From Solicoccozyma terricola (taxonomy: Eukaryota; Basidiomycota; Tremellomycetes; Filobasidiales; Piskurozymaceae): a stretch of DNA of 64,000 nt. Shown piece by piece: positions 9,177 to 34,370 of the stretch. The stretch is from contig BCLD01000013.1 in assembly GCA_001600875.1 (NCBI GenBank), positions 608,033 to 672,032 on the forward strand, given 5' to 3'. A program made the position numbers and the translations under genes. Below the pieces are notes generated by a model. The model was not told the origin of the DNA. It saw nothing but the letters and a program-made list of their open reading frames with translations, and did no database searches. Position 1 is the first letter of the stretch. Each line of letters starts with the position of its first letter.

Positions 9177-10068
9177 TGTAACGATCTAACGTCGATCGCC
9201 ACGTTCGAGATAGACAAGTCACCTGACTCTCTATCCAATGTTCGATCAGCTATGTCCTATAGCGTGTCGCTGTCCGTCGACGTCGACGGGTAGCGACCTG
9301 GGTACGTGTACGTGGGTGCAAGCGTGGCAGCTGGCGAAGTAAGAGGTCTAGCTTGAACGCCTATGGGCAAAGGTCGCTCGTGTGATGCTTTATGTGGGCA
9401 TACAATTGATAATATTGCTCGAGGGAAGAGAGCAATATGAAGAGACGTACAGAAGGCTTCCTTATGTACCTAAAAATGGACGGGAAACCCTGGCTGCTCG
9501 CCAGTCCTGTCCGGACCGTACCGGCTAATGCCAGCATCCCTCGAACGACCATATTTGCAATACGGATCGCGACGTCCTTGGTCCCAAGCGTTCTTGGACC
9601 TCCTATGTCGTCGGGGCCAGCTGCCAAGGTACCGAAAGGTACCCCAGCAATCCCCATTCGTCCATGTCTTGATCGGGGCGTCCCGTAGGGTCTCGCCGTA
9701 ACTCCCTTTGGTCGGTGATACTCGGCTACGAGGATGGAGACTNGAAGCGAGCTGGCGTAAGGTCCAGACGGGTCCCGGCAGGTCGCTGTCCGTCGACGGC
9801 GACAGGGAGATGGAACGGAAGATCGTCCATGAATGGCGTGCGACCATTTATCCATATCGAACGNTCGTCGGCCCCCGTAGCAGAGCGGAGGTCCTTTGGT
9901 GTCGTGTCCCTCGTAAGGGACACAGCAACGGGGCGACGGTTGAAGTCAGGGGTGACTCTGATATTGGACGACGCGTATGATGACGTGTCGTAGGCTAGCG
10001 AGTATGATGACGTGTCGTAGGCGAGCGATACTGGAGTCGTTATTCGTATCAGAGGAATTCCCGTGACA
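9177..10068 (+). mobile_element. Solo LTR, family A (longer variant), imperfect TSD
   Basis: Begins TGTAACGATCTAACGTCG and ends AATTCCCGTGACA, as in the 7619-8415 copy, but is about 95 bp longer and diverged in the middle. The flanks are CATGG (9172-9176) and CATGT (10069-10073), a 4 of 5 match. Two single N bases (9743 and 9864) mark uncertain calls. A short tandem (CGTATGATGACGTGTCGTAG, twice in variant form near 9976-10021) lies near the 3' end. The element sits in the 3' end of the coiled-coil gene at 10069-11747. Confidence 0.88.
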
Positions 10069-11747
10069 CATGTGTTGATCCACTGGCATGTCGAGGGATC
10101 GAATAGCATACAGCCGAGCATGATACAGTGCAGTCAGTTGAGCAGATGGGTCAAGGACCACCAGACTGTCAGGGATTTGCCCTTCCAAAGTGAATCGATA
10201 AACTAGGTCCGGAGAGAGACCCTCCAATGGAGAGTACGATGGTTTGGTGGACAGAGTGGTGGTTGGATTTAGGATGGGATTAACCATTGGTTCAACAGCG
10301 GGTTTGACAGCTGTGGATTCAAGATTATATTTTCCTTGAACCTCGAGTTTCATCGCCAGAGTGTTACCAATCCTGATACTATCCTCCAATTGAGCTATTA
10401 ATATCTGGTAATCCGACCACCGACAAGCAACCCTATCCGGATGTTTCTCCATGTGTCCCTGAGCATGTTCAAGGTTTTTCACCCTTTCTTTCAGAGTACA
10501 CATACCCTTCGCTACCAGGTGATATTCTTTCTCTAGAGTTCAAGCTTACTATTCGAAGCTTCGAGTTGAGCCGTAAGCGTTGCAATCGTTATTCCAGTCT
10601 CTTTCTTCATTAACTCTGCCTCCTCGATGAGCTTATCGTGACTGTCGGTGGTCTCCTTTGACATTGAGGATGAGGCGAGGAAGTGCTTGATATCGTGGAT
10701 GTACAGGAGTGCATCATCCCTCGTGGATTCATCCTTTGAGGATTCATCCATGAGGTAATCATCTGGTGAGGTGGTCTCCAAAAGGGACCAGTTGTTGCAA
10801 ATCGAGGCAAGTTCTGTTCGAAGCTTGTGAATCGTATGTCGGAGCCTGGCAGCTGTGGCCATAGATGAACTAGCTTCCGCTGAGGCCTTTGCTTCTGCAT
10901 CCTGCACCCTAGTCTCCATGGCATCCACCTTGTTCTTCTCTCTTTCCAAACTTGATTCCATTGTCTGTCTCTTTTCCCTTTCTGTCACCAACTCACATTC
11001 TGCCGCCTCTGTCAGACTCCTTTGCTCCTCAATAGTCCGTTTAAATCCCTTTATTTCATCCTCCATCTCCTTGATCTTATCTTCCAGCTTTGTCTTTTCG
11101 TTCGTCATCGTTTCGATTGCTGGTGATTCGATGAGAGGTGCTGGAGGTGCTCCGTGGGAAGCATAGAAAGAGTGATACTGGAGTGTTGATTGGAATAAGG
11201 CTTGTCCACCGTTCGTTTCGAAGGTGGGAAAGTTAAGATCCGGATTTGATGGATAAGGAGTGGGTACATATAGATGAGGAGGTCTGAGAAAATCGAGTTC
11301 ATGAGCTTCGTAGTATGTTACGCCCACCAACGTTGCCGGAGAATATGATGCTGGGTCCAGAAAGATGGCTCGAACAGCCTGTTCTATTGGTGATAAAAGT
11401 AAGTTAGGTGCGCAAGAATGACCTGGGTAGGATCCGATCTGTGCGCAGTGTTGGCAGACGTCGAGCACATCAAAAGGGACAGTACCGGGAGACAGTGGTG
11501 GCCACTCTGTATGGTATGCCATGTTCTGTATGAGTCTGAAGAGGACCCCATATTGATGTGGTGTAAGGAATTGAACGAGTGTTGGTGTTGGGAAATGCAA
11601 AACGCCGATATGTAGTAGAGCACCTTGACATCGTTGTACACATTTTCTCCACCAAGACTGTTGGTTGTAGTTGTAGTTTCGTGGGAGGGAGTATAGGCCT
11701 GGTGACATCTTACACCATCCACGATGTTGTATGAAGTCATGAGGCAT
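10069..11747 (-). pseudogene. Coiled-coil protein gene, frameshifted and LTR-truncated
   Basis: Two long minus-strand frames, 11747-10533 and 10503-10069, read as one protein broken by a shift or unrecognised intron near 10,520. The N-terminal about 200 residues are globular, with many Trp, His, Pro and Cys (PGLYSLPRNYNYN, QHCAQIGSYPGHSC). The next about 200 residues form a coiled coil rich in Glu and Lys (KIKEMEDEIKGFKRTIEEQ). The 3' end runs straight into the LTR at 10068. I do not recognise the family. A second coiled-coil gene lies at 23.5-26.8 kb on the same strand. The fusion of the two frames is inference. Confidence 0.5.
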
Positions 11748-11903
11748 GTTGGGTGTGTCTTCGTTGTGACTATATTGATGTTGCTGAGTTCACGTTCATG
11801 TTTAGTCACATCTAGACAACATTCCGCGTGCCTCCAACTGTGGGGCAACATTCGAAACATTCGATTTCGTTCCTCCACTCTGCTTATCGATATCATTATC
11901 TAC

Positions 11904-12176
11904 CTAATCATTGATACAGGTCGCAGCTGTATCGTCCAACAACCTCTTCATTGCAAGAGCCACCTCTGGTTCTTCCTCGGTTGGTACATGTTGACGAGGC
12001 ATTCCAACCACCACCCGGTTAGCCTCCCGATACAATCGAATGTCTTGTTCAGTTGATAGCAACTCAATGCTATTAGCAACAGATGCGAGAGGAGGACCAA
12101 CTATACTGCCAGGTGCTTCAATCCTCCATCTGTCGAGTGAAAGAAACATCCTAATTTCTTCTGGAGTAGCATTCAA
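11904..12176 (-). CDS. Short unrecognised coding fragment
   Basis: A 90-residue minus-strand frame with even composition (motifs IRMFLSLDRWRIEAPGS, REANRVVVGMPRQ) and an acidic end. It may be an exon of a longer minus-strand gene. No domain is recognised. The spacer to 12,581 has only short frames. Confidence 0.25.
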   Translation of the reverse strand: MNATPEEIRMFLSLDRWRIEAPGSIVGPPLASVANSIELLSTEQDIRLYREANRVVVGMPRQHVPTEEEPEVALAMKRLLDDTAATCIND

Positions 12177-12581
12177 ACTTCTTCTGGTCGGTATATCTAA
12201 ACCAAATGTGGCGTGAAAGACATGTAGAAAGGTCTTGCTATCTGTTCACCCTGGCTGGATGTCCCAAAATGATATCAGGTGATGTTTGCAAATGTGGTGG
12301 ATGTGAGGCAGCTTGGTGTAGTTTAGGTTTGATGGACTGAGTGGGACAAGTAGCCAACAATCAGTGGGATGTAGAAGCAGTGAGGAAAAGGCGTACAAAT
12401 GCACATTTTCACCTGTCCAACATGATATTGATCACTGAAGTAGACCATGGGTATCCCTGGTTCTGAGCTTTCGAGGTATCGGACATTGCGAGTGCTCAGT
12501 AATGGAAGGATGTGGACGAGGTGGCCCTTGAGAGGGTGCTGGCGAATAGGAACAACCCAAGAAAAAAAGAAAAAAAAATCA

Positions 12582-13530
12582 TCATATAATCAGCCTTAGG
12601 TGAATCAAGATCATATCAACCCAAATAGACCTCACATCTAACACTTCCCTCATTTTGGCCAGCCACCCCATGTGCAGAAATGAGCCGAAGTGTTGTAGCA
12701 ATATGGTGACCAACCATTCCGTTTGTTCCATCTTTGCTTCCACATCTCTGAAATAGCTGCCAACATTGATTGTATTCAGCTCATCTTTGTCATCGTCATC
12801 TGCTTCGTCGGTGTACTGTTGGTTCTCTTCATCAACTTCCTCGAGATAATCGCTGATTTGATTGCTGATTTGATGGCTGATATGATAACACAATAGCATT
12901 GTTGTTTCCACACTTGATGATATGAGGAGAGGAATGAGGTGGATGAATGGATTAGGATACAGGAGGAGGAGTGGTAAGAGTTGTCGAATGATGGCATCAC
13001 CGAAAAAATCATGTCTTTGAAAGACCTCAATCCAGGAGATGACATGGAGCGGGTTGATGGTGGACGGATCATAAACTGGGTTCTTCATGATGTCTTCGAG
13101 AGCGCTGGCATGGTACCCACCCAAACTATCAGCATCCTCCACATGGCAATCCCAGACACCCCAATACTCACCAACATACTTTCTGAATCACTGTCGGCAA
13201 ATTGACTAAATCGTTTGCCAGGTCATGGGAATCCACCTTCAAACACCATGACATATATCCCAGCAACATTCTGAGTAACATGGACAGTATCCCTGCTACC
13301 CCACTGTAATCTTCGCTCTGTTTTGCAGCCATATACATTGACATATCCAGCAAATGAACAAAGGCATGTCTCGGGAAGATGAGGAAGGTTCAGATTCGAG
13401 GAGCATTTGGATGCCTGCTGGGTATGCAAAGAATGACTGGTATGCTTGATTGTCACGATAGGAGGATGTTTTCAGAGTCCACATGTTGGCTTGGTCTTGG
13501 AGGTCTGATAGATTGTCGGTGGTGGTCATG
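12582..13530 (-). CDS. Unrecognised island gene, probably multi-exon
   Basis: The first Met is likely at 13530 (start MTTTDNLSDLQDQANMW). Frames at 13353-13168 and 13142-12582 continue the same strand and need two joins I could not fix exactly. The last segment is helical (MEDADSLGGYHASALEDIMK), then hydrophobic, then acidic (DEADDDDKDE), and ends ILIHLRLII. The start codon lies 20 bp from the terminal-repeat element at 13551-14085, which separates it from the divergent gene starting at 14373. No function can be given. Confidence 0.4.
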
Positions 13531-13550
13531 GTGTGTGGTTGGATGGTGTG

Positions 13551-14085
13551 AGGAATGTAACTGCAAAGTAACATTCATTAACCGGACCCCTTACCACTAT
13601 GGCAAAAGGCCACAATTCCACGCTCAAAGTGGAATTGAGTTTGCAGTTGTATATAAACCCAACACGCCCAAGGATGTGGTCCCCGTAGCATCCTTGCACC
13701 ACTCCCCCCCTCAAGGAAGCGGTGTCCCGACGCTGTAGCTTACATAACGTCTCCAGGGGCAACCCCTGCCACCCTTAGGTTCGAGGGACCTCCCAATGAT
13801 TATGTAATGTGTGATAACCAAATGACACCCCCACCTGTGTCATGACCAGCAATGATGTGTTTTATTGGGGACTAGGCCGTGCAATAAACCTTGTCAGGTC
13901 TGGGATTCGAACCGGTGCTTGAGCGTGGAATTCTGTAAGGAATGTAACTGCAAAGTAACATTCATTAACCGGACCCCTTACCACTATGGCAAAAGGCCAC
14001 AATTCCACACTCAAAGTGGAATTGAGTTTGCAGTTGTATATAAACCCAACACGCCCAAGGATGTGGTCCCCGTAGCATCCTTGCA
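13551..14085. mobile_element. 535-bp element with 148-bp terminal direct repeats
   Basis: 13551-13698 and 13938-14085 are identical at 147 of 148 positions (one G/A difference) and in the same orientation. Each copy holds a TATA-like TATATAAACCC. The 239 bp between them has no coding frame, but contains GGTTCGAGGGACC and GGGATTCGAACC, words like a tRNA T-arm. The flanks are GATGGTGTG on the left (ending at 13550) and GATGGGTGTG on the right (from 14086), a possible 9-10 bp target duplication with one G inserted. It could be a tiny LTR element (TRIM) or another non-autonomous transposon. The near identity implies recent activity or gene conversion. Confidence 0.8.
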
Positions 14086-14372: not shown

Positions 14373-15263
14373 ATGAATCCCCGAAACCCTCTCAACCCCC
14401 ACCTCCCTCTACCAAATCCCACCGAATTCCAACATCGAAAGGAATCATCCCAACAGTGCCATTTCAATTACAACCATTCCAAATGGTCCGACAGTTTCAC
14501 CTGGGTAGCCTACCCACCAAACGAACCAGCCTCCATTTTGAAAGATCCTTGGGAGACATATCCAATAGATCTCAAACGTCGTTCGTTAATTCGCATTGAT
14601 CGAGCGATGTATTCTGGCCTGTATGGTGAGCTGTTCTATCAGTGTCACTATGAAGGTCAGGAACGACCTATTTGGGTACCGGCGTTATTCATCCAGCATT
14701 ACCAATCCGAGGCCAAACAGCATTTCTGGGAAACAGTTGCAGACAAAGATCACCCTCGAGGACCATGGCCACTGAAACGCTCAGGAGATGTCATCAATAC
14801 CCATCCAATGGCCACCGGTCAGCCACAATGGACAGCTCCCAAGACTTGGACATCCCACAACTGGCCTCGTCGAAAGGATGGTTCACCGCTCGACCACAAT
14901 ACGTACCAAGTGCACTATGATCATCTCGTCGGTGTACAATGGTTACTTCAAAAGAACAAGAAGTCCCCTCAGATGCTAGAGCTGTTGAAGGAGAAGGGTC
15001 CTGACGAGATCCTTCGTCACCTGCTTGTCGATTTCCGGGGGTTCGGGGAGGGTTTGGCATGTCTGGATGAGATTAGAGGTGCAAGCAGCATCGATGAGGT
15101 TCCCGCCATCATAGATGCCTATGACCTTTGTCATATTCCCGGAAACATTAAAGATTCTATCATGGAAGCTGAGATTGGTGTTTATGTCAAGGAGTGCTGC
15201 TGGAAGATAAATGATCTTCTGCTGCTCGACAAACGGGATAATAACAGTCATTCCGGGATGTAG
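14373..15263 (+). pseudogene. Unknown multi-copy family, N-terminal and middle part, truncated
   Basis: A single open frame of 296 residues. It has the family N-terminal signature: W.(D/E).F.W, then a Tyr/Leu-rich block (YSGLYGELFYQCHYE), then W.P.LF; compare WTEQFRFRD, YGEYLFRNLWFYQ and WNPFILGW in the copy at 19675-22606. Further on, EAEIGVYVKE matches ANKIGVYFKL there. The frame ends at about 15,250, where the plus strand becomes the antisense of another family copy; the stop is probably an accident of that junction. It starts from a Met near the end of a promoter region shared with the minus gene at 12582-13530. Confidence 0.55.
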
Positions 15264-18124
15264 GCACATGGTTACTGGGAGCGAGGTGATTACCATATCT
15301 ACATTGAGAGCGATGCATTCTCTAACCTCTCTCTGGAAGACATTGGTGGAAACCATAAGTGATTGAAGGAATTTGGTGATATCAGGCTGAGCCTTGAATT
15401 TGGCGAGTCCATGAGCGCTCTTGTCAACCAGATTGCTTGATAACTGTGATGGAATTGGAGTTCAGTCAGGGATTTTCCCGATTATCGAGTCATGTACCCA
15501 CCATCAACATCACCAGACCCTTCACAGCTGCCACCTGAGCGCTCTTTAGACTTCCAAGGTGTTGAGATCGAACCGGTTCTTGCATGAGGGTCATTGGGAT
15601 GCCAAGCAGCTTGTCGCTAAAGTCACCAACCCATGTTTGATTGAGGTGTACAGCATATGCCTGGCAGAATTCCATGAGTCCCATCTTGCAGAATGCCGGG
15701 AGAGAGAGCGCTACCTTCTGTGACATGATCCCCAACACAATATGACCACCTTGTCACGGGAATTCCTCTGAACACGCTATGATCTCCCATCGCCGTCGCT
15801 CTAGGATATCGGATAGGGGTGCCACGTCATTCAACATGAACTCACGCACGTTATCATCGTCATTCATGTGACCCGAACTAGGCTCGTACACCTACAACCA
15901 TTGTTCAAGGAACAATGGACATATGGCAGGTCTATGGCCCGACAGCGGCTAAACTGACTCACACCATCTCAGACGTGGTCGCCATCAGATGGATCCGTCC
16001 GAATCCGTCCGCATTCGTCCAAGACATGCTCTCGCCGCTCGTACACCCACAAGTCGGCTCGAATCTATGTTCTGAAGTCGTGATATGACCTTACCATAGC
16101 TTGGCAGTATGGATCGGTCGAGCACGAACTCCAGTATCTCCAATACGGCCTCTATGGAACAATGGAGCGTCAGAACAGTATGGTCCGGATGGTATGCCAG
16201 TTAGCCAAGTGTTCCCATCCATCCTACGTACTTAAGGTAGCCTTTTGTACGTACTCTAGTTATTGCTCTCTTTCCTCGAGCAATATTATCAATTGTATGC
16301 AACACCCTTAACGACCATTGCATTACACGACCGACCATTGCCTAGAGGCACTCGAACGTAGACGCACTTAGTGAAGCAAGCTCCGCTTACACACACACGA
16401 ACACACGAAGACGACACCACGTGGATCCGACCGAATCCATCCAAATCCGTCTAGGACCCAACGAACGCTGACCGATACCGAATAGAGAGTCAAGTGACTC
16501 ATCCATCCTCGGGTGTGACGATCGTCGTTAGATCGTTACACACCTCCTCGTTCCATCTGCTTCTCAACAATCCTCTTCCCCGCCACTACCATGGTTGGCA
16601 TGTCGAATGGTATGAGAGTCTGTTCAAAGGGATTTATTTTGCAATCGGCATCCACATCGATAACACGAGAGAGACTTGAGAGGTTTGGACCAAGCATCAC
16701 TGGGGAAGGTGGAGTTGGAGAGGATACTTGACTGAAGTCCACGTAGCATTGCCATGTTGGGACCCTCGAAAGGATCTTCTGGATTTGTCCAGCATCGGAC
16801 ATGTTGTGGTGCTGAGAAGATGTAGTGTATGTTTCAGAGCCCTTCACTCATGCCCTCTGCAATGACCCTGACCTCCTCATCATGGTTGTATATGGCTGGA
16901 TCTCCACCAGGGGCCACATTTGTCATTGCAAACTTGGTTCCTCTGTATGCTCCGAAAGCAGTCACAGAATGTTGACCTCCCTTTGCTTGCATTGTTGCAA
17001 TGGCACTGCATTCCAGAACACTTCCGATACAATGATAGTGAGTGGTGATATGACCAGGCATGGGAAAGGTGGGGAGATGAATGATTTTAGAGACGATGCA
17101 GTTGCGGTTGGATGATATGAGCTGTAGAGCAGCATACAGCTCGCTGTTGGAGAAGACTTTCATGCGAGTTCTACCCTTCAAGCCGACAAGAGAGAGAAGT
17201 GTAGCCATACGTCCGCCAACAGTGGATTTCATTGTTTTGTACGACCATCGACACCTTGAGTCATGATGCCACTGTATCCTGCCACGATCTGGAAACGCTG
17301 ATTACCAAGTATGACCGAGGTTTTGAGGGAGAATGAGAGTGATTGGATGTACTCATCATAGTCACGATCATTCGGATCAAAGTTTGCAATCTTCTTTTGC
17401 AAATCCTTGACGGCATCTTCTGCAATCAAGATGAAAGCATCATACACCATTGAGGCATGACCATTTGTCCTTGCAACGTCACCATCATTGAACATCCAAC
17501 TCCAGGCCTGGTCCATTGGGAGTCCATGTAGAGCATCATCCTTGAGATCAAGCATACCCCTGAGTGCATCTTCAGGAAGTACTTGTAGTGATTGCAGGGC
17601 GGGGATGATGTCATCCAAGCTAAAGGTAAGACCCACTTCGACCACATATTCCACGAAGACCGTCGTGACTTAAAGCAGTGGTGGAGAAAGCACAAGTCTA
17701 TCATGGATGTGAGAGATGAGATCGAGTACGGCCTTGGAAAGGAGTGAGCTGCACGATGCCATGTCTGTGTCCATCTCCTCGTCTTCATCCTCGCCATTGA
17801 CCTCCTCGTTGGCGGGGCCAGAGACATCATTCTGAAAATCCATCATCCCTTCATCCATATCTGACCACCTTACTTCATTACCACTGGACTCCATTTCCTC
17901 ATCTGAGTTGGCATATTTGTTGTCATCTCATTGATCTTCCCAATATCCCTCTGCCCAAGGTTGGGAACGACCCACAGAGAACATTTCAGTTTCGTTATAT
18001 TCTTCGTAAATGTTGTATTCTTCATAGACAGTAAATGCCATTGCATCATCTGTACCTTCATCCATCACCTCATCCTCGTCGGAATTGTCATCGGAATCCT
18101 CGTCATCAGTCAGTCTTGGCCATG
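15264..18124 (-). pseudogene. Unknown multi-copy family, copy interrupted by a solo LTR
   Basis: The minus strand carries an acidic N-terminal part (18124-17670), a middle part (17654-17229: SLDDIIPALQSLQ and MVYDAFILIAEDAV), a part at 17232-16834 (VGGRMATLLSLVGLKGRTR), then VIDVDADCKINPFEQTLIPF and EKQMERGG at 16541. The LTR follows, then GHIVLGIMSQKVALS at 15,746 and a last exon (ECIALN, SLP.TM.LHPGM). The copy at 30534-31540 has the same sequence without the LTR. Introns (for example GTGGGT near 15,505) separate some parts; others look frameshifted. No known fold is recognised. Confidence 0.6.
15752..16540 (-). mobile_element. Solo LTR, family A, with perfect TSD CACCT
   Basis: This 789-bp block is the reverse-complement form of the 7619-8415 LTR: it begins TGTCACGGGAATTCC and ends CGTTAGATCGTTACA. 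CACCT precedes it (15747-15751) and follows it (16541-16545). The allelic empty site GACCACCTCCTCG is visible, reverse-complemented, near 30,703-30,715 in a sister gene copy (CGAGGAGGTGGTC), which proves the insertion point. Confidence 0.95.
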
Positions 18125-18321: not shown

Positions 18322-18972
18322 GTGGTTCAATCTTGAAAATCACCACTCATCGCCCTTCTCGAGGAATCGGACAGCCATTAAAGAACGCCGATATCTACTC
18401 GAACCCTCAGAAACACATCTTCACCGAGGAGTGGCTTGCCATGCACCCGGTGGAGAGGATGTATTTCGTTATCCCTGTTGAAACATGGACCTCTTTCGCC
18501 CAGGTCAAGGAGATTCCATGGTACAAGAATCACTCACTGATCACCGAAGACAAGAAGATGAAAGAGATTCTTGAGGAGGCCTGGGTGGAGAGGCAACATG
18601 TTTATGGAGCTCCTCAAGTGGCCGTGGAGATTGAAGGCAAGATTTACATGGTCGATTGGGTGTTGAAGGGGGAAACCACAGGGATGGATCAAGGGTCTGG
18701 CGGAGAGTGCAGCGGAACAATGTCAGGTGAACATTTTGGTGCAGACTTTGCAGCAGACAATGAACACAACGTGCCGCCGAGGGAGGCTGAAGAAGAGGTG
18801 GCTGCGCCGGCAACGACAACAGCGAGCACCGGATTATCTTCAGCAGACATTGAACATGCCGAGGCCACCGAGGAGCAAGTTGTGGCGGCGAATGCTAGGG
18901 CACAGGTGCCAGAGAGAACATCCACGAGAACAGCAAGGAGGCAGATATACAGCGGCATGTCCATCGACCATG

Positions 18973-19003
<31 letters not shown>

Positions 19004-19235: not shown

Positions 19236-19281
19236 GGTGTGTGTGCTGTGGGTAGAATGGAGGAATGGAGAATGACCCTTT

Positions 19282-19674: not shown

Positions 19675-22606
19675 TCACCGCCAACACTTGAAACGCTGTT
19701 CACCCTGTTCACTTTGAGGGATATTGCTCTGGGAGCTACGCTGAACGATTTGTGTGTTCAGCTGGGTACTACTAAAGCTTGAAATCCTGCTGGGAACCTC
19801 CACCGTGCCAGAGCTTGCACCCTGTGGCGTTGCTTGAATTATCTCTCCAAGGCTCCTCTCACTCGGTGTCCTGGGAATGGAGGTCCTCTCGCTGGTTGTC
19901 CCCAGGTTACTGCTCCCATCACTCCTGGCACTCGAGGGAATAAACGAGCTGTCTGATTCAGGAACAGTGGCGATTCTTCGAGGGCAAGGGATCCTCCTAG
20001 GCGGCGCCGCCACCACCACCCCACCCACATCCGGCATCTGAACGTCATCGCCACGAGGTAATGGTTGGCCAGGGAGATGGACATTGTCTTGCATGATTCT
20101 GAAGCCCTCATCTCTGTGATAATCCTCATCCTCGTCCACTCCATCAACCTCATCAATCATTGGGTCCTCCATTGCACCATTCAATCTTGCCTCTTGAATG
20201 TGTGCACGGATATCAATGTATCGCCATGGGATGATGTTCTGAGCAGCTTGCTGGTTCTGATGCAGTGCATGCACACAGTGAGCCTCGATGAGTTGAACAG
20301 CCTGGATAAATTCCGGATCGTTGTCCTTTGTCAAGGTACCCAGATGTTCCCCTTGCATATCAAAAAAGTGAGCCTCGATTCCCTCTCCTGAAACTGGAGG
20401 TAGTCCAAAACAAGGATCCACTCCGGATGTTCTGATGACCATCTTGAGCAAAGTTGCCCGGGGATCCTGATTGGGTGGAATGACCATTGAGGGGATCCTT
20501 AGCATGATGACATTGGAACGATAGATACATGCAAAGGCATCGATGTTGTCTATTGTCATTTTCTTTCCTTCTATCAGTGTCTGTTACACATAATCCACCA
20601 TCCAACCTCCACTCACTTGATTTAGCACTGCATTTCAACGGCTCACAAATCTCTTCTGAGAATGCTTGGATCCCTTCTGGGGGCACTTTTACGGGCAGTT
20701 AGTAGTGGGTATTGCCATGCTTGTAGGCTGTGTATACCTTGTGTTGTCCTTGTCCAGGTTTGAATAGGACTGGGGGCCCGGGGGGGAGGGGGGGCGGCGG
20801 TTCAGTCACAGTCCTCATCTCCCACGACGCCGATGCCGACGCCACCACACTCACTCGTAAAAAGCTCTTCATACTCGCGGAACATGCCCATCGGAATCAC
20901 ATGAGGAACCATCATTCGATTCGCCTCACTGACATTCAAATCAGCATCCCACCTCCCTCTGGCCACCTTCAACTCCTCGTGGACGACTGGAACCAATCGT
21001 TTATAACTACCACCACCAAGGATCTCATCCCACATCCACATATCCACCGGATACGATATCAATGGATCGACCACATTGGTACATGGCTGTTGCACACACT
21101 CCAGACCAACAAACCCAAACACCTCGGCATTTCGGGTGACTTGAATTGCAATCGCTTTTGAATGTGAATATGCATGTTCCCTATTCAACTGGGATGGATC
21201 ACGCATTCCCAGAGCAGCATGACCCACTGCATGCATAAAAAATCACTCTGCGATCACCATAAATGCCCGTTCAATGGAGAGAAGCCGGTAAGCGAGGGTT
21301 TTCTTGTTTTTCCAATCCCGATGAGACAACCTCAGGTATTCCGTGATTTCTTTTGCAGCATCAGAATTTCCACCAGTGAGGAGTAGCCGGATTGAAGGAA
21401 GGTCCGTGAGCATAGCGATCATGGTGTGAAGGGTCGATTTGATTGGTTCATCATAAATGCTGGGCCATGGGGGAGATTAGAACCCAACAGAGAAAAAGAA
21501 AAACACCCTGGCACTCACTAAAGGAAACTGTTTGGATCCATCACCTCTTGATGATACGATGTCGCACCCTTGTATGAGGCAACCCTCCCTTTCACCCCCT
21601 TTTTCCCTTTGGTCACGGTCTTTTTCAAGTGATCCAGACAACCAGAGATGGCAACACCGATATAGGACAAGCAGGCTCCATTTTGTCCACGTTTTCCAAT
21701 CTCATCTACAGCTACCTCATTGTACTCGTGAACCATCAACTTGAAGTAGACACCGATCTTGTTGGCCTCAGGGTGGCCTGGTGCATCCAACTTGGAAACA
21801 AATGACACCCCACACTCCTTTAGATGCTCTAGTGTGACATTGGAAGCCACCACAGCAGAGTTTCGAAGCATGATTGCCTTGAGGTAGGGTATGAATTGTG
21901 GCAGACCGGTGAAGAATTCGAGTATTTGGTCGTTTGAGAGGTCACGAAGAGCGAGTTGGACCCAAAGGGTTGTTTCCATCTGTGATACTGTGTCTCGAAT
22001 ACCGTCCAGGATCGCATTGTGGAGAACATACAGTGTGTCCATCTCATATCTTTCGTTCTCGAGACCACTAAAAGTTGTCATTTGGAATTGATCATATAGT
22101 CGGCTTGTTGCGGTTTCAATAAACCCGTTTGGTTTCATCGGTTTCGTCCCAAGCTTCAAATCCAATTGAACCTCTTCCTTGTCCCCTCTATAATGCAAAC
22201 GGTCCCTCCCATGTTTCCTTAAGAATTCCCTTGTCTTTACCCGATCATGTTCCTCCACCAACCATCCTAGGATGAAAGGGTTCCAATCGAGACCAATATC
22301 GATCTGGTAAAACCAAAGATTTCTAAACAAATACTCGCCGTAAATAATCTCCTTGATTTCCCTTTCATCCAAGAGATTCCGTTGATGACCCTCAATCACA
22401 TGCATATCACGGAATCTGAACTGTTCCGTCCAGTTTTGTGGTTCTTGATGGCGCCAACGGTGTTGTTTTGGAGGGGTTTGGGTGAATTCATTGAGAGGGA
22501 CTTGTTCTTGACCACTGTAAATCGTAATGGTTTGGTTTCTTGGCTGATTGGAGGGGAGTATAGCAGCAGGGTCAAGGTGGCGGAGATCTTCATGGAGGCG
22601 GGACAT
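19675..22606 (-). CDS. Unknown multi-copy family, best-preserved full-length member
   Basis: Start ATG at 22606 (MSRLHEDL). The first exon (22606 to about 21,520) holds the family N-terminal domain (WTEQFRFRD, YGEYLFRNLWFYQ, WNPFILGW) and a helical middle (QFIPYLKAIMLRN, ANKIGVYFKLMVHEYNE). After an intron, 21,480-20,810 continues (YDEPIKSTLHTMIAMLTDLP, GHAALGMRDPSQLNREHAYS); a G/C-rich intron ends at about 20,768. The last part (from about 20,690 to 19,675) holds ICEPLKCS, LLKMVIRTSG, then an acidic and Ser/Thr-rich tail. One in-frame stop at about 21,243 may be a short intron or a real break. A divergent small gene starts at 22794. No known domain is recognised. Confidence 0.55.
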
Positions 22607-23365: not shown

Positions 23366-23507
23366 TGGATGAGAGGAAGAGGGGTTCGAGGTCAATGTCG
23401 AGGGTTGGTTTGGATGGTTCATGGTCTCCAAAAAGAGCTAAGGCAAGGAGGTGAAATAATTACATTTTTGTATTACTATCACTATCATGTCTTCCCCGCA
23501 TCCTTCA

Positions 23508-26500
23508 TCATCTTCTCGGCCATGTACCCTTCAAACCAGCATGTATTGAATGACAGCACAGTACCCAGCTGATTTGATGTAGACCTGGAAAGTGCATGAG
23601 GTGGTTGGTTGGTTGGTTATCCATGACATGGTTCCCCCACCCCCGACCCCCCCACCCCCCACCCACCGGCATCTCCTCATCAGAAAACAACACCTCATAC
23701 TCTGTCACCTTCTCTTCCTTGATCCAATGTGCTCGAGCTACCCAGCAATGCAAGTCATCCATTCGTAGCAAAAGTTGTGTTGTTAGTTTTTTTGTATCTG
23801 ACAAGCCTGGATTCTCTTCGAGTCGAATGACATGTTGGTGGAGGAAAGTCTGTGGATCACAGGGTCAGTGTGTTGATTCACCATCAGAATCCTCCACCAA
23901 CCCACCCACCTCCAACACCACCTTGTTATGTGGGTTGTCCTTGAATGACTCGTGGTATGAAGGAAGACCATCCATCGGTTCAAAGCTGTAGTGGATGATG
24001 TATGGATTTGGTGTATTTTCATTGCACACACTCATGCCATGGTCGATCTTGGGGTTGTCAACGTCATGGTAGAGGTCAGAGAGGATGGGGGTGTAGGCAG
24101 GAGCCCAGATGTAGGTCTTGTGGTGTATCATTGTTGAGTGGTGTTGGTGTGTTGGGAAACATGAATCCATTGAAAATAATTGCTGCTATGATTTATTTTA
24201 CACGTGCCACCATCAACCCACCCACCCCATCCTTGTCCATTCCAACGATCAACATGTCCACCAAATCTCTCCCCAGCTTGACTCCCTCTTTTGCCATGCT
24301 GATATCATCGCTGCGGAGGGAATGTCAGAAGGTAATCATCCCAACATGACCCACGGGCACACACCCACCTTTCCAGCAGTGTCTCCAATGCCTCCTTCAA
24401 TGCAGGCAGCTCTGGTTGACACAGTGGGAGCAAATTCCTCCCAAACTCGTCCCATTTCGCTGGAGGATACCGTGGAGACAGAGCCAGCTCCTTTCGAGAA
24501 CTGTACCTCCTCCTCCATGCCACTATTGAGTCCATGTCTGCTATGGTGGCTGCCTCGAGTAGATGTCGAAGGCTAAACCATAGCGTCAGACTGCCACTGT
24601 TCACCTGGAGTGAATGATTTGTATTAGGATTCCATTGCAAGTCATCCAGAGGGATATCATCGCCATGTGCTAGACGTGTGTATATATCCCAGTAGATGGT
24701 AGCAGCAGCATCAATCGATTCAATCTCTGGGTTGTCAGGATTCAACAGCTTCAGAGCGGCGACCTCAAGCTTGAGACCCTGGATGGTAATGTCGGCAGTG
24801 GTGGCCTCGCTTGAAGCAGCTTCAGCAGCCTCCTGCGGTTGACTCTGGTGAGCTTGCTTGAAGTCTCTTCGAGGTCCCTGCTAGCCTTTTGTGCATCGGA
24901 TTTTGCCTGGTCCAGGTCTTCATAACACTTTCTGAGCTCTGCCTTGACCGCCACAATATCCTTCTTTGCAGTAGCGGCTTTGGTGGCAGCTTCCTTGCCC
25001 TGCTGAGACAATTTGGTCCGTTCAGCCCTGATCCGGACGAGATCACTGTCAAGCTCCTTCAGCTGGTCGTTAGCCTCTTCAAGGCTCTCGACTTTTGCCG
25101 CCAATTCCTTTTTGGTTTCTTTGAGGTGGATCTGGCATAGATTGAGGATTTCCTTCAGATCCGTAATTTCCTCCTCGACGGTAGCAGCAGCAGCAGCTTT
25201 GGCATCCTCATCAGACTGGTGATGCAGGTTGTCGAACATAAACCTGGCGCTCTTGAGATTTTTCTCACTCTCGTCCAGCTGATTGGTAAGCTTTTGCACC
25301 CTCTTGAGATTCGTCACCGAGTCCATCACCCAGTCCTTTTTGGCGGCCTCGAAGTCCATCTGGCATTGCTGGAGCTGTGACCATACGACCTGGATCTCCT
25401 CCTTGGGGGTAGTGGCAGCAGTGGCAGCGAGGGTGGCATTCATCAAGGCTTTCTCGGTTGCCTTGATCAATATGTCATGATTGTCGGTGATCGTATTAAG
25501 CTGCTTTGCACGTTTTTCCCGGCTAAACTTTCGCTTGGAGCTGATCTTCCTGACAGAGAGATCAGCCATGGTCTTTTTCTGCAAGCGCCTCTTCGAAGCT
25601 TGCTCTGCAGTTTTCCGAGCTGTTCCCGAGCATCCCTCTGTGTGTTGCAACAGCGCTGTTAGTTTGGGGATTCAAACGAGGGGAAAACTCTCCAAAACTT
25701 ACCTCGGTCTCATCATGTGCCCTCCTCTCCATAGCAAGTTTCTCCCGGTGGTCAAGGAGATTGTCCTCCAGTCGTTGGATCTCTGCAGACAACGAGGCAA
25801 TGTTGACATCCTGCTCTTTGCAAAGTCGGTGGTTCTCTTGTTCCAATGGCGTTGCATTGACCATTAACCCGACAATTTGCTCCTCTTGCAGTGCATTTTC
25901 CCTCCAGAGTCCCTCGATCTCATCTTGCAATGCAACCACATCATTGCCATACCACATGTCATCCTCCACTGACCGATCTCTCAAAGCCTGATTATCAACT
26001 CGGCACCCATCGAGTTCCATGTTAACACCCCGCAGTATTGTCCAGTGGTGAGACTCAGCTGCGGCCATCTCAGCATTGTGTTTGACCAAGAGTTGGCATT
26101 CATGGTTTTCGGCAGTAATGTTCCCCTGATTGCAATGTTCAATTGCGGCTTCGAGCTCACTCTTCAACATTTCAAGCCTGATCTTGTTGTCAAAGATGAC
26201 CATGTTTGCCGACCCGAGCTGTTCCCTCAACATGTCTATTTCTAGACCCCGATGAAACGAGTGAAACATGTTGACCCATCAACCTGGTTTGCTGAGCATT
26301 GTAGCAATGACAAGCGTTGTTCAAAGTTTGGAGATGTCGGGTGATGGCAGTGTCCTTGGTAGAGAGGGTGTTGACCTGTTGGGCGATCGTAGCTGACTGA
26401 GATCGAATCGTCTCATGGATGGTCTCGACGTGCTGGGTGATCGTCGCGTCCTGCTCTTCAATCCTCCCCTTTTGCACATGGATGGTCTCAACCTGGCCAG

Positions 26501-26836: not shown

Positions 26837-27041
26837 GGGAATGCTGTTGAATTTACATAGAGCATTGGATGGATCGTGGCTGGCTGTGCTCTGGCTTTAA
26901 TGACAGTTTCACACCGACATCCCAGTTGGACTTGACAATCTGTCACCAAAAGAATCATCACATAGTCATACTCATCATATTAAGATACTCACAGAAAGTC
27001 TGCTACTAATTTTCGACAATCAAACAGACCTGAATCCCCTT

Positions 27042-27767
27042 TCAGACCTCCTCCAACTCCACCTCCGGTAATTGCCCTTCCTTGCGAAGCTGTTGAATCA
27101 TACCGACAATCGAATGCTGAGTGTGCCCAAACCACTCTCCGGCAAGTTGAGCAATACCATGCAAGTCACCACCTGCTGTGCTGTAATAGACCAAGCAGCA
27201 TTGCTCTCTCCTAGTCCAGTGGCCCTTATTTGCCCTTTCTCCCTCTAGGAACCGAACGAGTTGCCAAGAGAAGCATTGAATCTCCACCCATGGTTCCTCG
27301 TCAGGGAGTCAAGGTTGCAGAAGGTAGTCCCGATGGAGTTCCATGTAGAGTATCTCTTCGCTTTGCAGGTGATATAAGAAGGTTGAGATCTGCTCGTCGA
27401 TGAGCTCTGCATTGTGAAACTCCAGGTCCACGCTGAGGTGTTGCTGCAGAAACCTGATCATCTTGAACCTTATTATGGCACTGTGTTGATACCCGGCACC
27501 CTGGATGGACTGACCGAGGAATGTCCGAATGAAATGGAGGTCGAATTCTCCTTTGATTGCATCGCAGACCAACCTGGATCCAGCTCCCGGTGTGATGTAA
27601 CCAACCACTTTAAGATGGAGTGCGATTGTTTCGGTCACAATGTCTGCCATTGGATGTCCAATCGCGAGCTTGCTTGGCATGAAGTTTGTGTAGGACGATG
27701 AGCTGCATGTAGTCCTCTGATGAAATGTCAAAGAACTAAGATGCGAGACCACATGGCCAATCAACAC
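27042..27767 (-). CDS. Unrecognised island gene (two segments)
   Basis: Two minus-strand frames, 27767-27309 (about 120 useful residues from MADIVTETIALHLKVVGY) and 27287-27042 (WEIQ..., GHWTRREQCCLVYYS), are close enough to be one protein with a small intron or shift at about 27,300. It is globular-looking, with many His, Gln and Leu, and ends in an acidic ELEEV. No domain is recognised. A family-B LTR lies just upstream (27,898). Confidence 0.35.
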
Positions 27768-27897
27768 TGATACTATCTTTCAAAGTACTCTTCTCGTGCA
27801 CTCACAGACACAGCCCACTCTCCTAGTTCCATCGCAAGCTGTTGAAAAGCCGGCGTTTCGGTAGAGCTCACGTGGTAGCTTTCTGGTCCATCATCTG

Positions 27898-28388
27898 TGT
27901 AAGGATACGACCCATCTCAGGCCCGAATCCTCACCGATCCGCGGATCTCGCCCACCGATTCTCCATCCATGGTGCTCCGGGCTACGAATCCCCGGAGCCC
28001 TCATATCAGCTGGACGACGATTCCCCATCTATCCCCCTCGTCGACGTCACCCCCGATTGGTTCGACCACCTATCGCCTGGAACACCGCTCCGAGAGTCAC
28101 CGAGAAGGTCTCGATGCCGATTGGTCAGCCATCCTCGCTCGCCGGACCTCGTATCTCTTTGGACCGGTTCTTCAGCGCTCTTTTCTCTTTTTCTCTTTTT
28201 CTCTCTTTTGACATCTCGCCCAGCGAGATGCCCCCTGTATATATAGCGGGCGCCTCTACCCTTCGGTGGATGGCCTTTTCCCCTTTTCCTCACCTTGTAT
28301 TAGACCAAGTCTTCGGAGTATACAACGTCTGTGCATCTCCACACCTCATCGATCGGCCCTAGGATTAGCTACCCTCTTCGGTCCTCGA

Positions 28389-28421
<33 letters not shown>

Positions 28422-28624
28422 CTCGCTCCTCATCTCTTCATTCTCCGGACACCGACTTCTCCTCCAGCCCGAACATTCCCTGCTGTCTTCATCTCTTTGC
28501 TCGACTTAGCGCTAGATCTGAATCCAACTGCGAGAGGCCCAATCTTCCGTCACTTGCCATATCACATCTCCGGCTACCGATTCTTCGTAGATTCCTCGTA
28601 GCCCTGAAGATCTGGCACCTGACA
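27898..28624 (+). mobile_element. Solo LTR, family B, with perfect TSD ATCTG
   Basis: This 727-bp block begins TGTAAGGATACGACCC and ends TCTGGCACCTGACA. ATCTG precedes it (27893-27897) and follows it (28625-28629). Its base composition is clearly GC-richer than its flanks. A TATA-like TGTATATATAGCGGGC lies near 28,228-28,243, followed by a (CA)n run at about 28,391-28,422. It shares only the TGTAA...TGACA termini with family A, so it is a distinct LTR family. No internal retrotransposon genes are present. Confidence 0.93.
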
Positions 28625-28629
28625 ATCTG

Positions 28630-30029
28630 TTTCTTTTCTGTAAGCAAATCGAAGGATAAGCAGTGCTTGGGATGCCGATTGTAGCAAAGTTCTCACTCCA
28701 TCTGCATAAATTGTTGCTTGTCATGGTCGCCTTGGTTAAAGTGTACCTCTGAGTCTTCGATTGAAATTCCTCCATTGCCGATCGGCCTATCATAAACTGA
28801 GGACAGAAACGGTAAAGTAGCCATCGAACCACACCGGCAGAGATGGCTGTGGTCTTTTCAGAATGCAAGAGCATAATGATACCATCACGAGACCAGCCAA
28901 GTTGGTCCTAAAGAGTGTTCTTGATATAGTCATCGACCTCTTTGATTGTATGGGATGGATGGTTGAAGTTTTGTCCGGAGATGGGCCCACAAAAGTAACG
29001 GCTGATTTCCCATTGCAAAGGTACAGCCCAATGGAGGCTCGAACCAGAATGTAGTCAGTTGAACAGCTCACTAACGATGACGGGCCTATGGGCAGATGAA
29101 ATCAAACAGGCTTTAGAGAGTACAGCTAATGGAAATAGAAGAAACGTAAGGCAAAGACACTCACAGGTGACCGAGATTGTTGTTTGCCAACAATTTTCTC
29201 GAAGTCTAAATCATCAGGTGGGCAATTACCACTCAGCGAGCATGCCGACATGTCCATCTCCCATGTCTTCCTTGATACCCACATTGTTCTCCAATGAAAG
29301 ATAAAACATCAACAACATCTGATGGAAGACAAGATGATGGGTGCCAGCATGTGCCCCACCAGTGACCACCTCATGACATTTGAGATGAGGCAGGAAGTCA
29401 ACTGTATTTGTAGCAGCTTCCATCTCGTTCATAGTGATGCTTCCTAGTTGGAAAAACAACTCTCTTCTACCAGCTTTCTTCGCCTTGCCAAGTTGGTCAT
29501 TGAGAGCATCAAGGACCAGAGTGGCAGGCAAATACTTGACTGTATGCATTGTCTTCTTGTACGTATCCATGAAGATGCCGAAAATCGTTGCATTGACCCA
29601 TGTCCAACGTGCAAGGATGACCCTATGGCAATATGGAACATGTACTAAATGTCAAACTCAGGGAATTTCCGACTATGACTAACTCAGTGCCGGCAGTGGA
29701 ACTCAAATTGTGATCCTTTTGCTGCAATATCTCCAATTTGACGAGTATATGATCTGAAACCATTGATGGTTCCACTTTGATGATTCGGTTGGATGAACCA
29801 ATGCCACTGAGCACATTACTCACCTCGCGTCTGGCGCATCAAAGCCCAATCCACTTCCGAATGATCTCCCTTTTTGGGTCTGTATAAGTCCTTCCAACGA
29901 TACAAATCGTTTTTGATGTTGTTCATGGGGCAGACTGTGTCGTCCTTGAATGTTCGAATGTGGCAAGTTTACCTTCACTCTCGAGATAATCGAGTATCTC
30001 CATCTGCTTGGAGTAGATGGACATATTTG
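28630..30029 (-). pseudogene. Unknown multi-copy family, decayed copy
   Basis: Minus-strand frames include MSIYSKQMEILDYLESEG (from about 30,022), SEVDWALMRQTR before a GTGAGT donor, and 29570-29226 with LVLDALNDQLGKA and HAGTHHLVFHQMLLMFYLS, which resembles the NGHASMVYDAFILIAEDAV region of the copy at 15264-18124. A later piece near 29,050-28,960 is frameshifted. The 5' end abuts the LTR remnant at 30,030. Exon joins are not certain, and the copy is probably non-functional. Confidence 0.4.
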
Positions 30030-30533
30030 TGTCACGGGAATTCCTCTGAACACGCTATGCTCTCCCATCGCCATCGCTCTAGGAGGATAGCTAGGAGCGA
30101 CACGTCATTCAAACATGACTCTCTATCCAATGTTCGATCAGCTATGTCCTATAGCGTGTTGTGGTCCATCGATGCTGACGTGCAGAGAACAGGGTTCGTG
30201 TTCATGTGCAAGCATGGCAGCCTTGCAAAGTAAGAGGTCTAGCTTGAATGCCTATGGGCAAAGGTCGCTCATGTGATGCTTTATGTGGGCATACAATTGA
30301 TATTATTGCTCGAGGAAAGAGAGCAATACAAAGAGACGTACAAAAGGCTTCCTTATGTACCTAAAATGGACAGGGAAACCCTGGCTGCTCACCAGTCCTG
30401 TCCGGGCCATACCGGCTAACACCATCATCCCTTGAACGACCATATTTGCAATATGGATCACGACGTCCAAAGTCCTAAGCATTCTTGGACCTCCTCTGGC
30501 ATCCGGGCCATCTGCCAAGGTGCCGAAAGGTAT
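30030..30533. mobile_element. Rearranged family-A LTR (inverted 3' end joined to forward body)
   Basis: 30,030-30,113 is the reverse-complemented 3' end of the LTR (TGTCACGGGAATTCC). From about 30,114 the sequence is the forward LTR body (ACTCTCTATCCAATGTTCGA ... CATACAATTGATATTATTGC ... GCCGAAAGGTA). It then passes directly into family coding sequence at about 30,534. The structure needs at least one inversion and two losses. Confidence 0.8.
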
Positions 30534-31540
30534 CCTCTCCAACTCCGCCTTCCCCAGTCATGCTTGGTCCGAACCTCTCAAGTCTCTCCGCATCATCGAT
30601 GTGGATGCTGATTGTGAAATAGATCCCTTTGAACAGACTCTCATACCATTCGACAGGCCAACCATGGTAGCGGCGGGGAAGAGGATTATCGAGAAGCAGA
30701 TGGAACGAGGAGGTGGTCATATTGTGTTGGGGATCATGTCACAGAAGGTAGCTCTCTCTCTCCTGGCATTCCACAAGATGGGACTCGTGGAATTCCGCCA
30801 GGCATATGCTGCACACCTCAATCAAACATGGGTTGGTGACTTTAGTGACAAGCTGCTTGGCATCCCAATGACCCTGATGCAAGAGCCGGTTCAATCTCAA
30901 CACCTTGGAAGTCTAAAGAGTGCTCAGGTGGCAGCTGTGAAGGTCTGGTGATGTTGATGGTGGGTACGCGACTCGATAATCGGGAAAATCCCTGACCAAA
31001 CTCCAATTCCATCACAGTTATCAAGCAATCTGGTTGACAAGAGCGCTCACGGACTCGCCAAATTCAAGGTTCAGCCTGATATCGCCAAATTCCTTCAATC
31101 ACTTATGGTTTCCACCAACATCTTCCAGAGAGAGGTTAGAGAATGCATCGCTCTCAATGCGGATATGGTAATCACTTCGCTCCCAGCAACCATGCACCTA
31201 CGTCCCGGAATGACTACCTTCTTGACCCAATCTGGTGACCACGATCTGGTAGTTCCGCTCAATTCCCCGTGCCGGGAGGATTCGAGGGCTACATTGAAGT
31301 GGAGATTCAGCCTCATCAGTTCATCGACACCGCCATGGTCCTGAAGATTGTATCCATCGAGAATGCTTGGCCGAGTGTGATTGATGGTGGAGAGGAATGC
31401 TTTTACTCGATTTTCAGCTTGAAGATGGGATACGTGATGAACGTGGTCGGGAGTGGTTCGATATACACGATAGATGCAAGGTCATGTGGAGGTGAGATGG
31501 AGATGGAGATGAACCTGAATGGGCTTGATGAGTGCTAATA
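30534..31540 (+). pseudogene. Unknown multi-copy family, C-terminal copy with empty LTR site
   Basis: Reads IIDVDADCEIDPFEQTLIPF, GKRIIEKQMERGGGHIVLG and SQKVALSLLAFHKMGLVEFR without interruption, so it preserves the site where the 15752-16540 LTR sits in the sister copy. An intron (about 30,955-31,018) precedes LSSNLVDKSAHGLAKF. A one-base shift near 31,268 separates ATMHLRPGMTT from GGFEGYIEVEIQPH, LKIVSIENAWP. The 5' part of the gene is missing, replaced by LTR sequence. Confidence 0.6.
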
Positions 31541-32131: not shown

Positions 32132-32594
32132 TCTTGGTAGAAACCTCATAGCCATCACTTCCGACCCTAGCCTGTTCAATGTTGATGCTACAACACCAAT
32201 TGATACCCCACACACAATGTAGATACCCATCACATTAAATTGTCACCGTCATAGGGTGGAGAGGGCCACATTACAACTCTTTTTGGTTTGATCTCTCATT
32301 TGCCATCATTTCCACACTGCCATTCCCATTACCCCTCTCCAGCTTTGCCAAGGTTGTCATCTAGACTACACCACCACTCCATCAAATTCTCTCAGATTCA
32401 TCATCCTCATCATCTCTGCACCATAGTTGCCATGTATCTCTATTCGATATCAGTAGAGGTCTGTGACATCCAGATCGACCTCCAGAGCAGCGAGAAGGTT
32501 CTGCTGAGCTGCTTTGATGAGGGGAAGGAGTGGATGAATGGTGTACCCTTCTGTATTTGGCATTAGAATTCAGTGACACTCGATATTATAGTTA
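32132..32594. other. Spacer, no gene recognised
   Basis: Only short frames are present. The 92-residue plus-strand frame at 32288-32566 lacks support and looks like chance. Confidence 0.35.
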
Positions 32595-34370
32595 TTAATG
32601 AGGCCACTCAGCACCTCGCTTTTCAACGTTCACAGAATGGGTTGACCCACTACCTCTTCCCTTTCTCATGTAACCAGTCTCCCTATCCATGACTCCATAG
32701 AACCGCTCCATGTCCTCCATGCTGTCACTCATTGGCCAAGCAGAATCGATAGAGAGAATCTTGAGGATGACAGTAGAAGGCATGGTCCTATGAGGCTCTA
32801 TCTGGACCTCGATATATCCCTCGAACCGTTCTGGCGCTGGGAATGGAATTGCGACTACTGGAGTGTTGGCGGCAGCTTGAACCAAGATGCTGGTAGCTCC
32901 AGAGCGTAGAAGTACAGTTGCTGGCAGTGAGGTGACCACTGTGTTGTTGATGCTATTTTGACGGATCTCTTGCTGGAACTTGTTGGTCGATGTGATGAGG
33001 GAGCGACAGAATTTGGCGACATGGGGTAGGGCTTTGAAGTCAGCAAGTCCATGACTGCTCTTGTCCGCGAGGTTCCCAGATAGCTAGATAAGGGGCACAC
33101 CCACCCAGTCAGTGATGTCCATGGCAATTAATAGGCCATCGGTGATGCTCTTCACAATGACTCACCATCAACATCGCCAGACCCTTCACAGCTGTGACTT
33201 GTGTGCTCGTTAGACATCCAAGCTATTGAGATCGAACTGGTTCTTGCATGAGGGTCATTGGAATGCCAATCAGGTTTTCATCATCAAAGTCACCGATCCA
33301 TGTTTGGTTGAGATGGGTTGTGTATGCTTGTCGGAACTGGACCAAGCCCATCGAACGGAATTCCAGGAGAGATTGAGCTACCTTCTGTTACATGATGCCG
33401 AGAACGATGTTTCCACGGTACCGGCGATTGCTGCCAGAGAGAAAGTATCCCCCAGATCCATATCCCCAAGAGCACCATCAACATCTTTCTGTCTCTGAAT
33501 CACTCTCCTTCCCATCTCCCTCATAATCTCCATATCATATGCATCAGACCACACCTCAGAGGGTTTGATGATGCCATCTTCATCCACATCCATCACCCTT
33601 AAAGACTTCTGTGGCTCGGTCCATGCCTGGTCTGGAAAGGTGGAATCGGAGAGGATTGATGATTGCATCCCATGTAGAGTTGCCATATTAGGACCTTTGA
33701 ATGAGTCATCTGGATCCATCGACCTTATAACTCATTGTGGTGCTGAAAAGATGTAGTGAACCCTCTGGAGCCCTTCCATTGCTCCCTCCCTGGTGGTTAG
33801 TCTTCGGACGTCATCACCACAGTCATATATCACAGGATCTCCACCTGGAGACATGTTTGCACAAGCAAACAACCGGAGAGCTTTTCTCTGCATCGAAGCA
33901 ATTGCAATACACTCCAGGACACTACCACTTCACAAGTAATGACTGTTGGATGTTTGATCAGGTGTCAGAATTGTTGGCAGATGGATAAGTTGGGCATGGA
34001 TGTGACCTCTTGACATCATCAATTACAATGATGCATACGGTTTGGCTCGAGAGAACCGCTTGATCTGGATGTGAGTATTGGATATTGGCTCCATTTGCTC
34101 GCTAGGGAGCAGACCCAAGGAGCCAAAGCAGCATGGCCATGAGTGAATCACTGCTCATAGATCTTGTGGACTCGTGACTATCCTCACCTTGAGTGGTGAT
34201 ACTGCTGTAGCCAGCGACAATTCTGAAGCATTGATTGTTGAGAAGGACAGAGGTGGAGATGGAGAGAGATGCAATGAAGTCAGCATCACAATGTCAAAAC
34301 ATGAAGTCAGCATCACAATGTCAAACATCAAGATGTTTTCACATGGCCCATGTCCAGGTTGAGGAGCCAC
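32595..34370 (-). pseudogene. Unknown multi-copy family, decayed copy
   Basis: Minus-strand pieces in order: SLSISTSVLLNNQCFRIVAG (near 34,230), GSVLECIAIASMQRKA and ANMSPGGDPVIYDCGDDV (near 33,900), SLRVMDVDEDGIIKPSE (near 33,580), a weakly readable middle, then VVTSLPATVLLRSGATS and EGYIEVQIEPH, LKILSIDSAWP, ending at 32,595. Several stops and shifts break it. Each piece has a counterpart in the copies at 15264-18124 and 30534-31540, in the same order. Confidence 0.55.
34273..34326 (+). repeat. Short tandem duplication
   Basis: A unit of about 27 bp containing ATGAAGTCAGCATCACAATG occurs twice in a row, within the 5' part of the decayed family copy. Confidence 0.75.

What the first reader, a model, noticed from the sequence alone, without database searches (positions are those of the whole stretch)
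9900..34370. A multi-copy, unrecognised gene family fills the island
At least six segments carry pieces of one large protein family in the same internal order: 14,373-15,263 (+), 15,264-18,124 (-), 19,675-22,606 (-), 28,630-30,029 (-), 30,534-31,540 (+) and 32,595-34,370 (-). Shared marks are an N-terminal W.(x)2F.W block, a YG.LF block, a GVY(V/F)K(E/L) block, (V/M)DVD.D..I.P, a KVALS segment, SLPAT..LR.G, a GYIEV.I.PH block and LKI.SI..AWP. I cannot match it to any known family. Only one copy looks near full length. Such a dispersed, repeatedly broken family could be a captured viral gene, the cargo of an unknown mobile element, or a fast-evolving host family such as a driver or recognition system.
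Basis: partly seen in the sequence, partly recalled or inferred. Interest (0 to 1): 0.85.

Follow-up and report, generated by a model that had tools for sequence, protein, structure and literature searches.

The report
Broken orphan gene clusters in fungus
A 25-kb island in a yeast-like fungus holds damaged copies of unrecognised gene clusters, some of whose other copies lie near chromosome ends; they were once working genes, but what they do is unknown.

Summary
The island is real, but it is not shown to be one family in six pieces. Segments 14,373-15,210(+) (A) and 19,675-22,606(-) (A') are distant relatives, shown through a fuller copy of A elsewhere (0 of 1,000 shuffles, 4 of 1,000 local shuffles). 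Segments 15,246-18,122(-), 30,530-31,540(+) and 32,595-34,293(-) form a second family, F3, 65-94% alike in DNA; its link to A is unproven. Segment 28,630-30,029 showed no significant relation to either. An A copy open over 743 codons, with two hand-placed introns, lies 7-9 kb from a contig end beside the same two neighbour genes as in the window. A' also keeps neighbours. Copies differ mainly at silent sites (A and A': dN/dS 0.14-0.39), so they were working genes. The family, structure, viral and prokaryote searches run found nothing; two unnamed metagenome proteins match A'. Solo LTRs with 5-base duplications cut two coding regions. Best reading: lineage-restricted, partly subtelomeric gene clusters decaying here. 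Function unresolved; both structure predictions failed.

The parts
14373..15210 (+). A: N-terminal part of a family A gene, cut off just after GVYVKE
   Evidence: 61% identical to the C6 copy over residues 8-294; dN/dS 0.14
15246..18122 (-). F3a: family F3 copy, interrupted by a solo LTR and missing its C-terminal end
   Evidence: 92-94% DNA identity to F3b, 69-78% to F3c; LTR flanks
19675..22606 (-). A': family A' gene, nearly full length, with an in-frame TGA in exon 2
   Evidence: hand-placed introns, exons and stop; copies on C28, C3 and C14
30530..31540 (+). F3b: C-terminal half of an F3 copy
   Evidence: LTR ends at 30,529
32595..34293 (-). F3c: the most diverged F3 copy
   Evidence: 65-78% DNA identity to F3a and F3b; protein match near 34.1-34.3 kb to F3a
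11904..13574 (-). B1: neighbour gene, divergent from A
   Evidence: 48-56% identity in three exons to the gene beside A on C6
10533..11789 (-). B2: neighbour gene with a CxxC...HxC block and a coiled coil
   Evidence: 45-63% identity to C6; also on C4 beside a telomere
18324..18668 (+). C: neighbour of A'
   Evidence: 64% identity to C3
23500..24131 (-). D: small neighbour gene of A'
   Evidence: kept on C3 and C28
24238..26280 (-). B': coiled-coil neighbour of A'; upstream limit uncertain
   Evidence: C-terminal part kept on C3 and C28; coiled-coil models
15752..16540 (.). solo LTR inside F3a, duplication AGGTG
   Evidence: empty site in F3b at about 30,702; other copies
27897..28625 (.). solo LTR, duplication ATCTG, splitting a separate minus-strand coding region (about 27,040-29,650)
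   Evidence: both ends repeated many times in the genome; duplication
30028..30529 (.). LTR fragment at the 5' edge of F3b

Best explanation
The island holds remnants of lineage-restricted host gene clusters: A with divergent neighbours B1 and B2; A' with C, D and B'; and a local family F3. Shown: repeated clusters with kept gene order, purifying selection in the past, one A copy that reads open near a contig end, a B2 copy beside a telomere, and stops, truncations and solo LTRs in the window. Inferred: copies spread by chromosome-end exchange and segment duplication, internal copies are free to decay, and LTR insertion plus rearrangement breaks them up. Function, inferred and weak: intracellular proteins that work together with their coiled-coil neighbours; a nuclease-like activity of A is only a lead.
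For: Same neighbours beside A on C6 and in the window, and beside A' on C3 and C28. dN/dS 0.14 for A and 0.16-0.39 in six A' comparisons; 0.30 for B2, 0.18-0.46 for three B1 exons, 0.13-0.37 for three F3 comparisons. B2 at C4:1,974-3,737 with CCCTAA repeats at the contig start. Three of nine A/A' loci start within 10 kb of a contig end, against 2.8% of the genome; P 0.0016 if independent (loci). No relative of A among 4,951 scored proteins in a library rich in fungi; only two unnamed metagenome proteins for A'. Solo LTRs with 5-base duplications.
Against: Six of nine A/A' loci are not near a contig end, including both in this window, and two of the nine are short fragments (37 and 68 residues, the latter in a low-complexity stretch). 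No transcript evidence; introns were placed by hand. Some dS values are saturated and one F3 comparison gives no ratio. Function is not shown.
Confidence: 0.6

Rival explanations
1. The clusters are decayed copies of an unknown multi-gene mobile element, with A as its enzyme.
For: Two multi-gene blocks recur at several places; A and A' share a GVY.K...Y(V/I)G block that recalls GIY-YIG nucleases, a domain that some mobile elements carry (PMC3846280 appeared in a search listing only).
Against: The 93.5% identical block shared with C28 begins and ends inside my gene models; inverted repeats found in the island are LTR or F3 pairs or short and unremarkable, and none brackets the C6 cluster convincingly. 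I did not search for ends exhaustively. No Pfam, NCBIfam or PHROGs match.
Confidence: 0.2
2. The clusters are a driver or recognition system (for example a spore killer or self/non-self system).
For: Fast divergence, linked divergent genes, broken alleles and low copy number are also seen in such systems (recalled).
Against: No direct evidence; purifying rather than diversifying change in these pairwise counts; PADLOC was not searched and is prokaryotic.
Confidence: 0.1
3. The genes were captured from a DNA virus.
For: No cellular family was matched.
Against: No relative of A' or A in IMG/VR (23 pattern hits for A were not confirmed); the PHROGs matches have E 0.3 or worse; introns. The island is slightly poorer in G+C than the left flank, which is only weak evidence of foreign origin.
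Confidence: 0.04

Closest known systems
Subtelomeric orphan genes of fungi (Neurospora crassa, PMC2684829; abstract and outline seen)
   Same: Lineage-restricted genes without annotation; there, orphans are enriched in subtelomeric regions and some are paralogous
   Different: Here the genes form multi-gene clusters copied together, and most A/A' loci are internal in this assembly
GIY-YIG nuclease superfamily (active site described in PMC1952068, passages seen)
   Same: A and A' share G(V/I)Y.K followed by Y(V/I)G, then a stretch with an Arg
   Different: Spacer of about 24-28 residues, no catalytic Glu that I could place, no match by Pfam, PF01541 genome search or PDB profile search

Membership tests
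   Through the C6 copy: 0 of 1,000 shuffles, 4 of 1,000 local shuffles; the window A piece alone is marginal (34 of 1,000)
   27 and 67 of 1,000 for C-terminal pieces against A; nothing against A'
GIY-YIG nuclease | Matches a profile of the superfamily | tested here: not met
   No Pfam match for A; PF01541 over this genome hit one other place, none of the A copies; PDB profile search 0 hits
GIY-YIG nuclease | Conserved Tyr, Tyr, Arg, His, Glu and Asn in a GIY-YIG fold | tested here: inconclusive
   Two Tyr and an Arg can be placed by eye, Glu cannot; structure predictions failed, mean pLDDT 30 and 34
Subtelomeric gene family | Copies concentrated near chromosome ends | tested here: inconclusive
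   3 of 9 A/A' loci within 10 kb of a contig end; B2 copy beside a telomere; some scaffolds hold internal telomere repeats
Mobile element | Shared ends and target-site duplications around the cluster | tested here: inconclusive
   None seen, but not searched exhaustively
Captured viral gene | Relative in a viral collection | tested here: not met
   IMG/VR scans for A' and A; F3 and neighbours not scanned

The most novel reading that the evidence does not exclude
A and A' are a new, very diverged GIY-YIG-like nuclease family that, with its linked coiled-coil proteins, forms a selfish module living at chromosome ends and copying itself into other chromosome ends and, at times, into internal sites such as this island.
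Probability: 0.08. Interest if true: 0.85.

Novelty: new member of a known kind. Interest (0 to 1): 0.42.

Why it matters
It gives a concrete set of unannotated genes with kept neighbours and a readable trail of decay, useful for studying how fungal chromosome ends create, move and lose genes. If A proved to be a nuclease, it would point to a new kind of chromosome-end element.

Tried and rejected
One family across six segments: not borne out as stated. Profile-profile comparison with hhalign had too few sequences; best E 0.03, for F3 against A. Structure prediction of the first exon of A' alone and of its last 199 residues with two metagenome relatives: mean pLDDT 30 and 34, so no fold search was run. 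GIY-YIG: motif only. Homology between neighbour genes of the two clusters: none convincing; the pair scores above chance (a coiled-coil gene with a proline-rich stretch of B2, and C with A') I set aside as composition, without a further test. The coding region at 27,040-29,650 looks like a separate gene split by a solo LTR. Telomere repeat in the window: none. Prokaryote genomes: no relative of A (10 pattern hits, none confirmed). A comparison of A with joined window reading frames was spoilt because the set held family members; not used. Five literature searches are all I ran and I saw listings only, apart from the abstract and outline of PMC2684829 and passages of PMC1952068; none named this family. 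PADLOC was not searched. F3 and the B genes were not searched in the protein library.
Full report
What the window is. The window is C13:608,033-672,032 of a 23.9-Mb assembly in 33 contigs. A homoserine O-acetyltransferase in the right flank (60,375-61,796) has its best named relatives in Naganishia at 64-65% identity, with unnamed ones at 75-90%, so this is a tremellomycete probably near the Filobasidiales (the order is recalled). The same search shows that the protein library is rich in fungi.

Two families, not one. The marks split without a bridge: YG.LF and GVY(V/F)K(E/L) occur in segments 14,373-15,263 and 19,675-22,606 only; KVALS, SLPAT, GYIEV and LKI.SI..AWP occur only in the other family. 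I call the first pair A and A'. The C6 copy of A aligned with the window A' runs over residues 60-639 against 56-664, score 102; shuffled mean 60.7, 0 of 1,000 reach it; reversed sequences give 59; 4 of 1,000 block shuffles reach it. The signal lies in the C-terminal part (1 of 1,000) and the GVY...Y(V/I)G block (5 of 1,000); exons 1 and 2 of A' as a whole are weak (63 of 1,000), the C3 copy of A' is weak (71 of 1,000), and the window's own A piece is marginal (34 and 31 of 1,000). The first 270 residues alone give nothing (438 of 1,000). BLASTP reached E 0.03, phmmer found nothing, hhalign E 0.26. So A and A' are likely but remote relatives. F3 has three copies in the window, 65-94% alike in DNA. 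F3 against A: 88 of 300 over full length, 27 and 67 of 1,000 for C-terminal pieces, 27 of 1,000 for a piece read in one frame. F3 against A': 98 of 300 over full length, 430 and 425 of 1,000 for C-terminal pieces. I count F3 as separate until shown otherwise. Segment 28,630-30,029 shows no significant relation to A, A' or F3.

Copies elsewhere. A: an open copy at C6:1,151,054-1,153,412 (743 codons with two hand-placed introns; the TGA that flags in the first exon row falls at the hand-placed exon-intron border), the truncated window copy, and fragments on C2 (37 residues) and C20 (68 residues, low complexity). A': window; C28:35.7-37.3 kb; C3:619.4-621.0 kb; C28:9.2-10.2 kb; C14:845.5-846.4 kb. 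The window copy has an in-frame TGA, the C3 copy two stops in its first exon, and the C28 and C14 copies change frame, carry stops or lack parts. With the middle piece of F3 as query, 5 of 20 matches in the genome are the three window copies; the other 15 cover only the first 51 of 171 residues, mostly the LTR part of that query. The 5' part of F3a found itself and F3b only, but that search also missed the diverged F3c, so counts are lower bounds.

Neighbours. On C6 and in the window A is divergently paired with B1 and then B2. Another B2 copy lies at C4:1,974-3,737, and C4 begins with CCCTAA repeats. Beside A', D and the end of B' are kept on C28 and C3, and C is kept on C3. The C28 block is 93.5% identical to window 20,944-24,811 and ends inside A' and B' as I model them.

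Selection. dN/dS is 0.14 for A, 0.16-0.39 in six A' comparisons, 0.30 for the N-terminal part of B2, 0.18-0.46 for three B1 exons and 0.13-0.37 for three F3 comparisons; a fourth F3 comparison is saturated at silent sites and gives no ratio. These are pairwise counts and some dS values exceed 1, so the ratios are rough; the ones computed are all below 0.5. These were working protein genes.

What broke them. A solo LTR at 15,752-16,540 sits in F3a between copies of AGGTG, and F3b shows the empty site. Another at 27,897-28,625 sits between copies of ATCTG in the coding region at 27-30 kb. LTR ends also lie at the edges of F3a (18,123) and F3b (30,028-30,529). Between about 15,210 and 15,246 the cut end of the A piece meets the cut end of F3a head-on, without an LTR. 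That these are solo LTRs is inferred from their TG...CA ends, 5-base duplications and copy number.

Where they live. Three of nine A/A' loci (C6, C14, C28 at 9 kb) start within 10 kb of a contig end; 2.8% of the genome does (P 0.0016 if the loci were independent, which those in one island are not). Six do not. C2 and C3 hold telomere repeats facing each other internally, so some scaffold positions may be joins.

What it is not, so far. No curated cut-off was reached in Pfam (the nearest was a leucine-zipper model on the coiled coil of B' from C3, 27.8 bits against 28.1) or NCBIfam; PHROGs gave E 0.3 or worse; PDB sequences gave no hit for A or for the A/A' block profile; IMG/VR none for A' or A; prokaryote genomes none for A; the protein library none for A and two unnamed metagenome proteins for A'. 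The GVY.K...Y(V/I)G block recalls GIY-YIG nucleases, whose active site is described with Tyr, Tyr, Arg, His, Glu and Asn (PMC1952068, passages). The spacer here is about 24-28 residues, longer than the usual one (recalled), no catalytic Glu could be placed, and PF01541 found none of the A copies. It stays a lead.

Verdict. A real, unannotated set of genes in lineage-restricted clusters, mostly broken in this window. Enrichment of orphan genes near chromosome ends is known in fungi (PMC2684829, abstract).

Noticed in passing
own genome G000: C2 at 636.5/639.5 kb and 1,126.8/1,132.1 kb; C3 at 343.4/347.7 kb: Telomere repeats face each other inside contigs, 3-5 kb apart, as if two chromosome ends had been joined: assembly joins or real fusions.
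   Followed up: no
window 27,040-29,650 (-): A separate coding region, split by a solo LTR with duplication ATCTG; part of it recurs at C28:28.8-29.1 kb.
   Followed up: partly
window 34,525-34,635 (-): A tRNA gene stands at the right edge of the island.
   Followed up: no
window 37,741-38,570: A run of N that seems to lie inside a TFB2-like gene; the gene name is recalled from its sequence, not from a search.
   Followed up: no
window 22,794 onward (+): A short basic reading frame starting MAGRKRKSKPP, divergent from A', is kept in the C28 and C3 loci; it may be another cluster gene.
   Followed up: no
window 13,538-13,830 and 13,925-14,085; L038 about 8,827-9,070: A second repeat family, 96-98% identical between these places, lies between B1 and A in the window and at the end of B2 on C6.
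   Followed up: no
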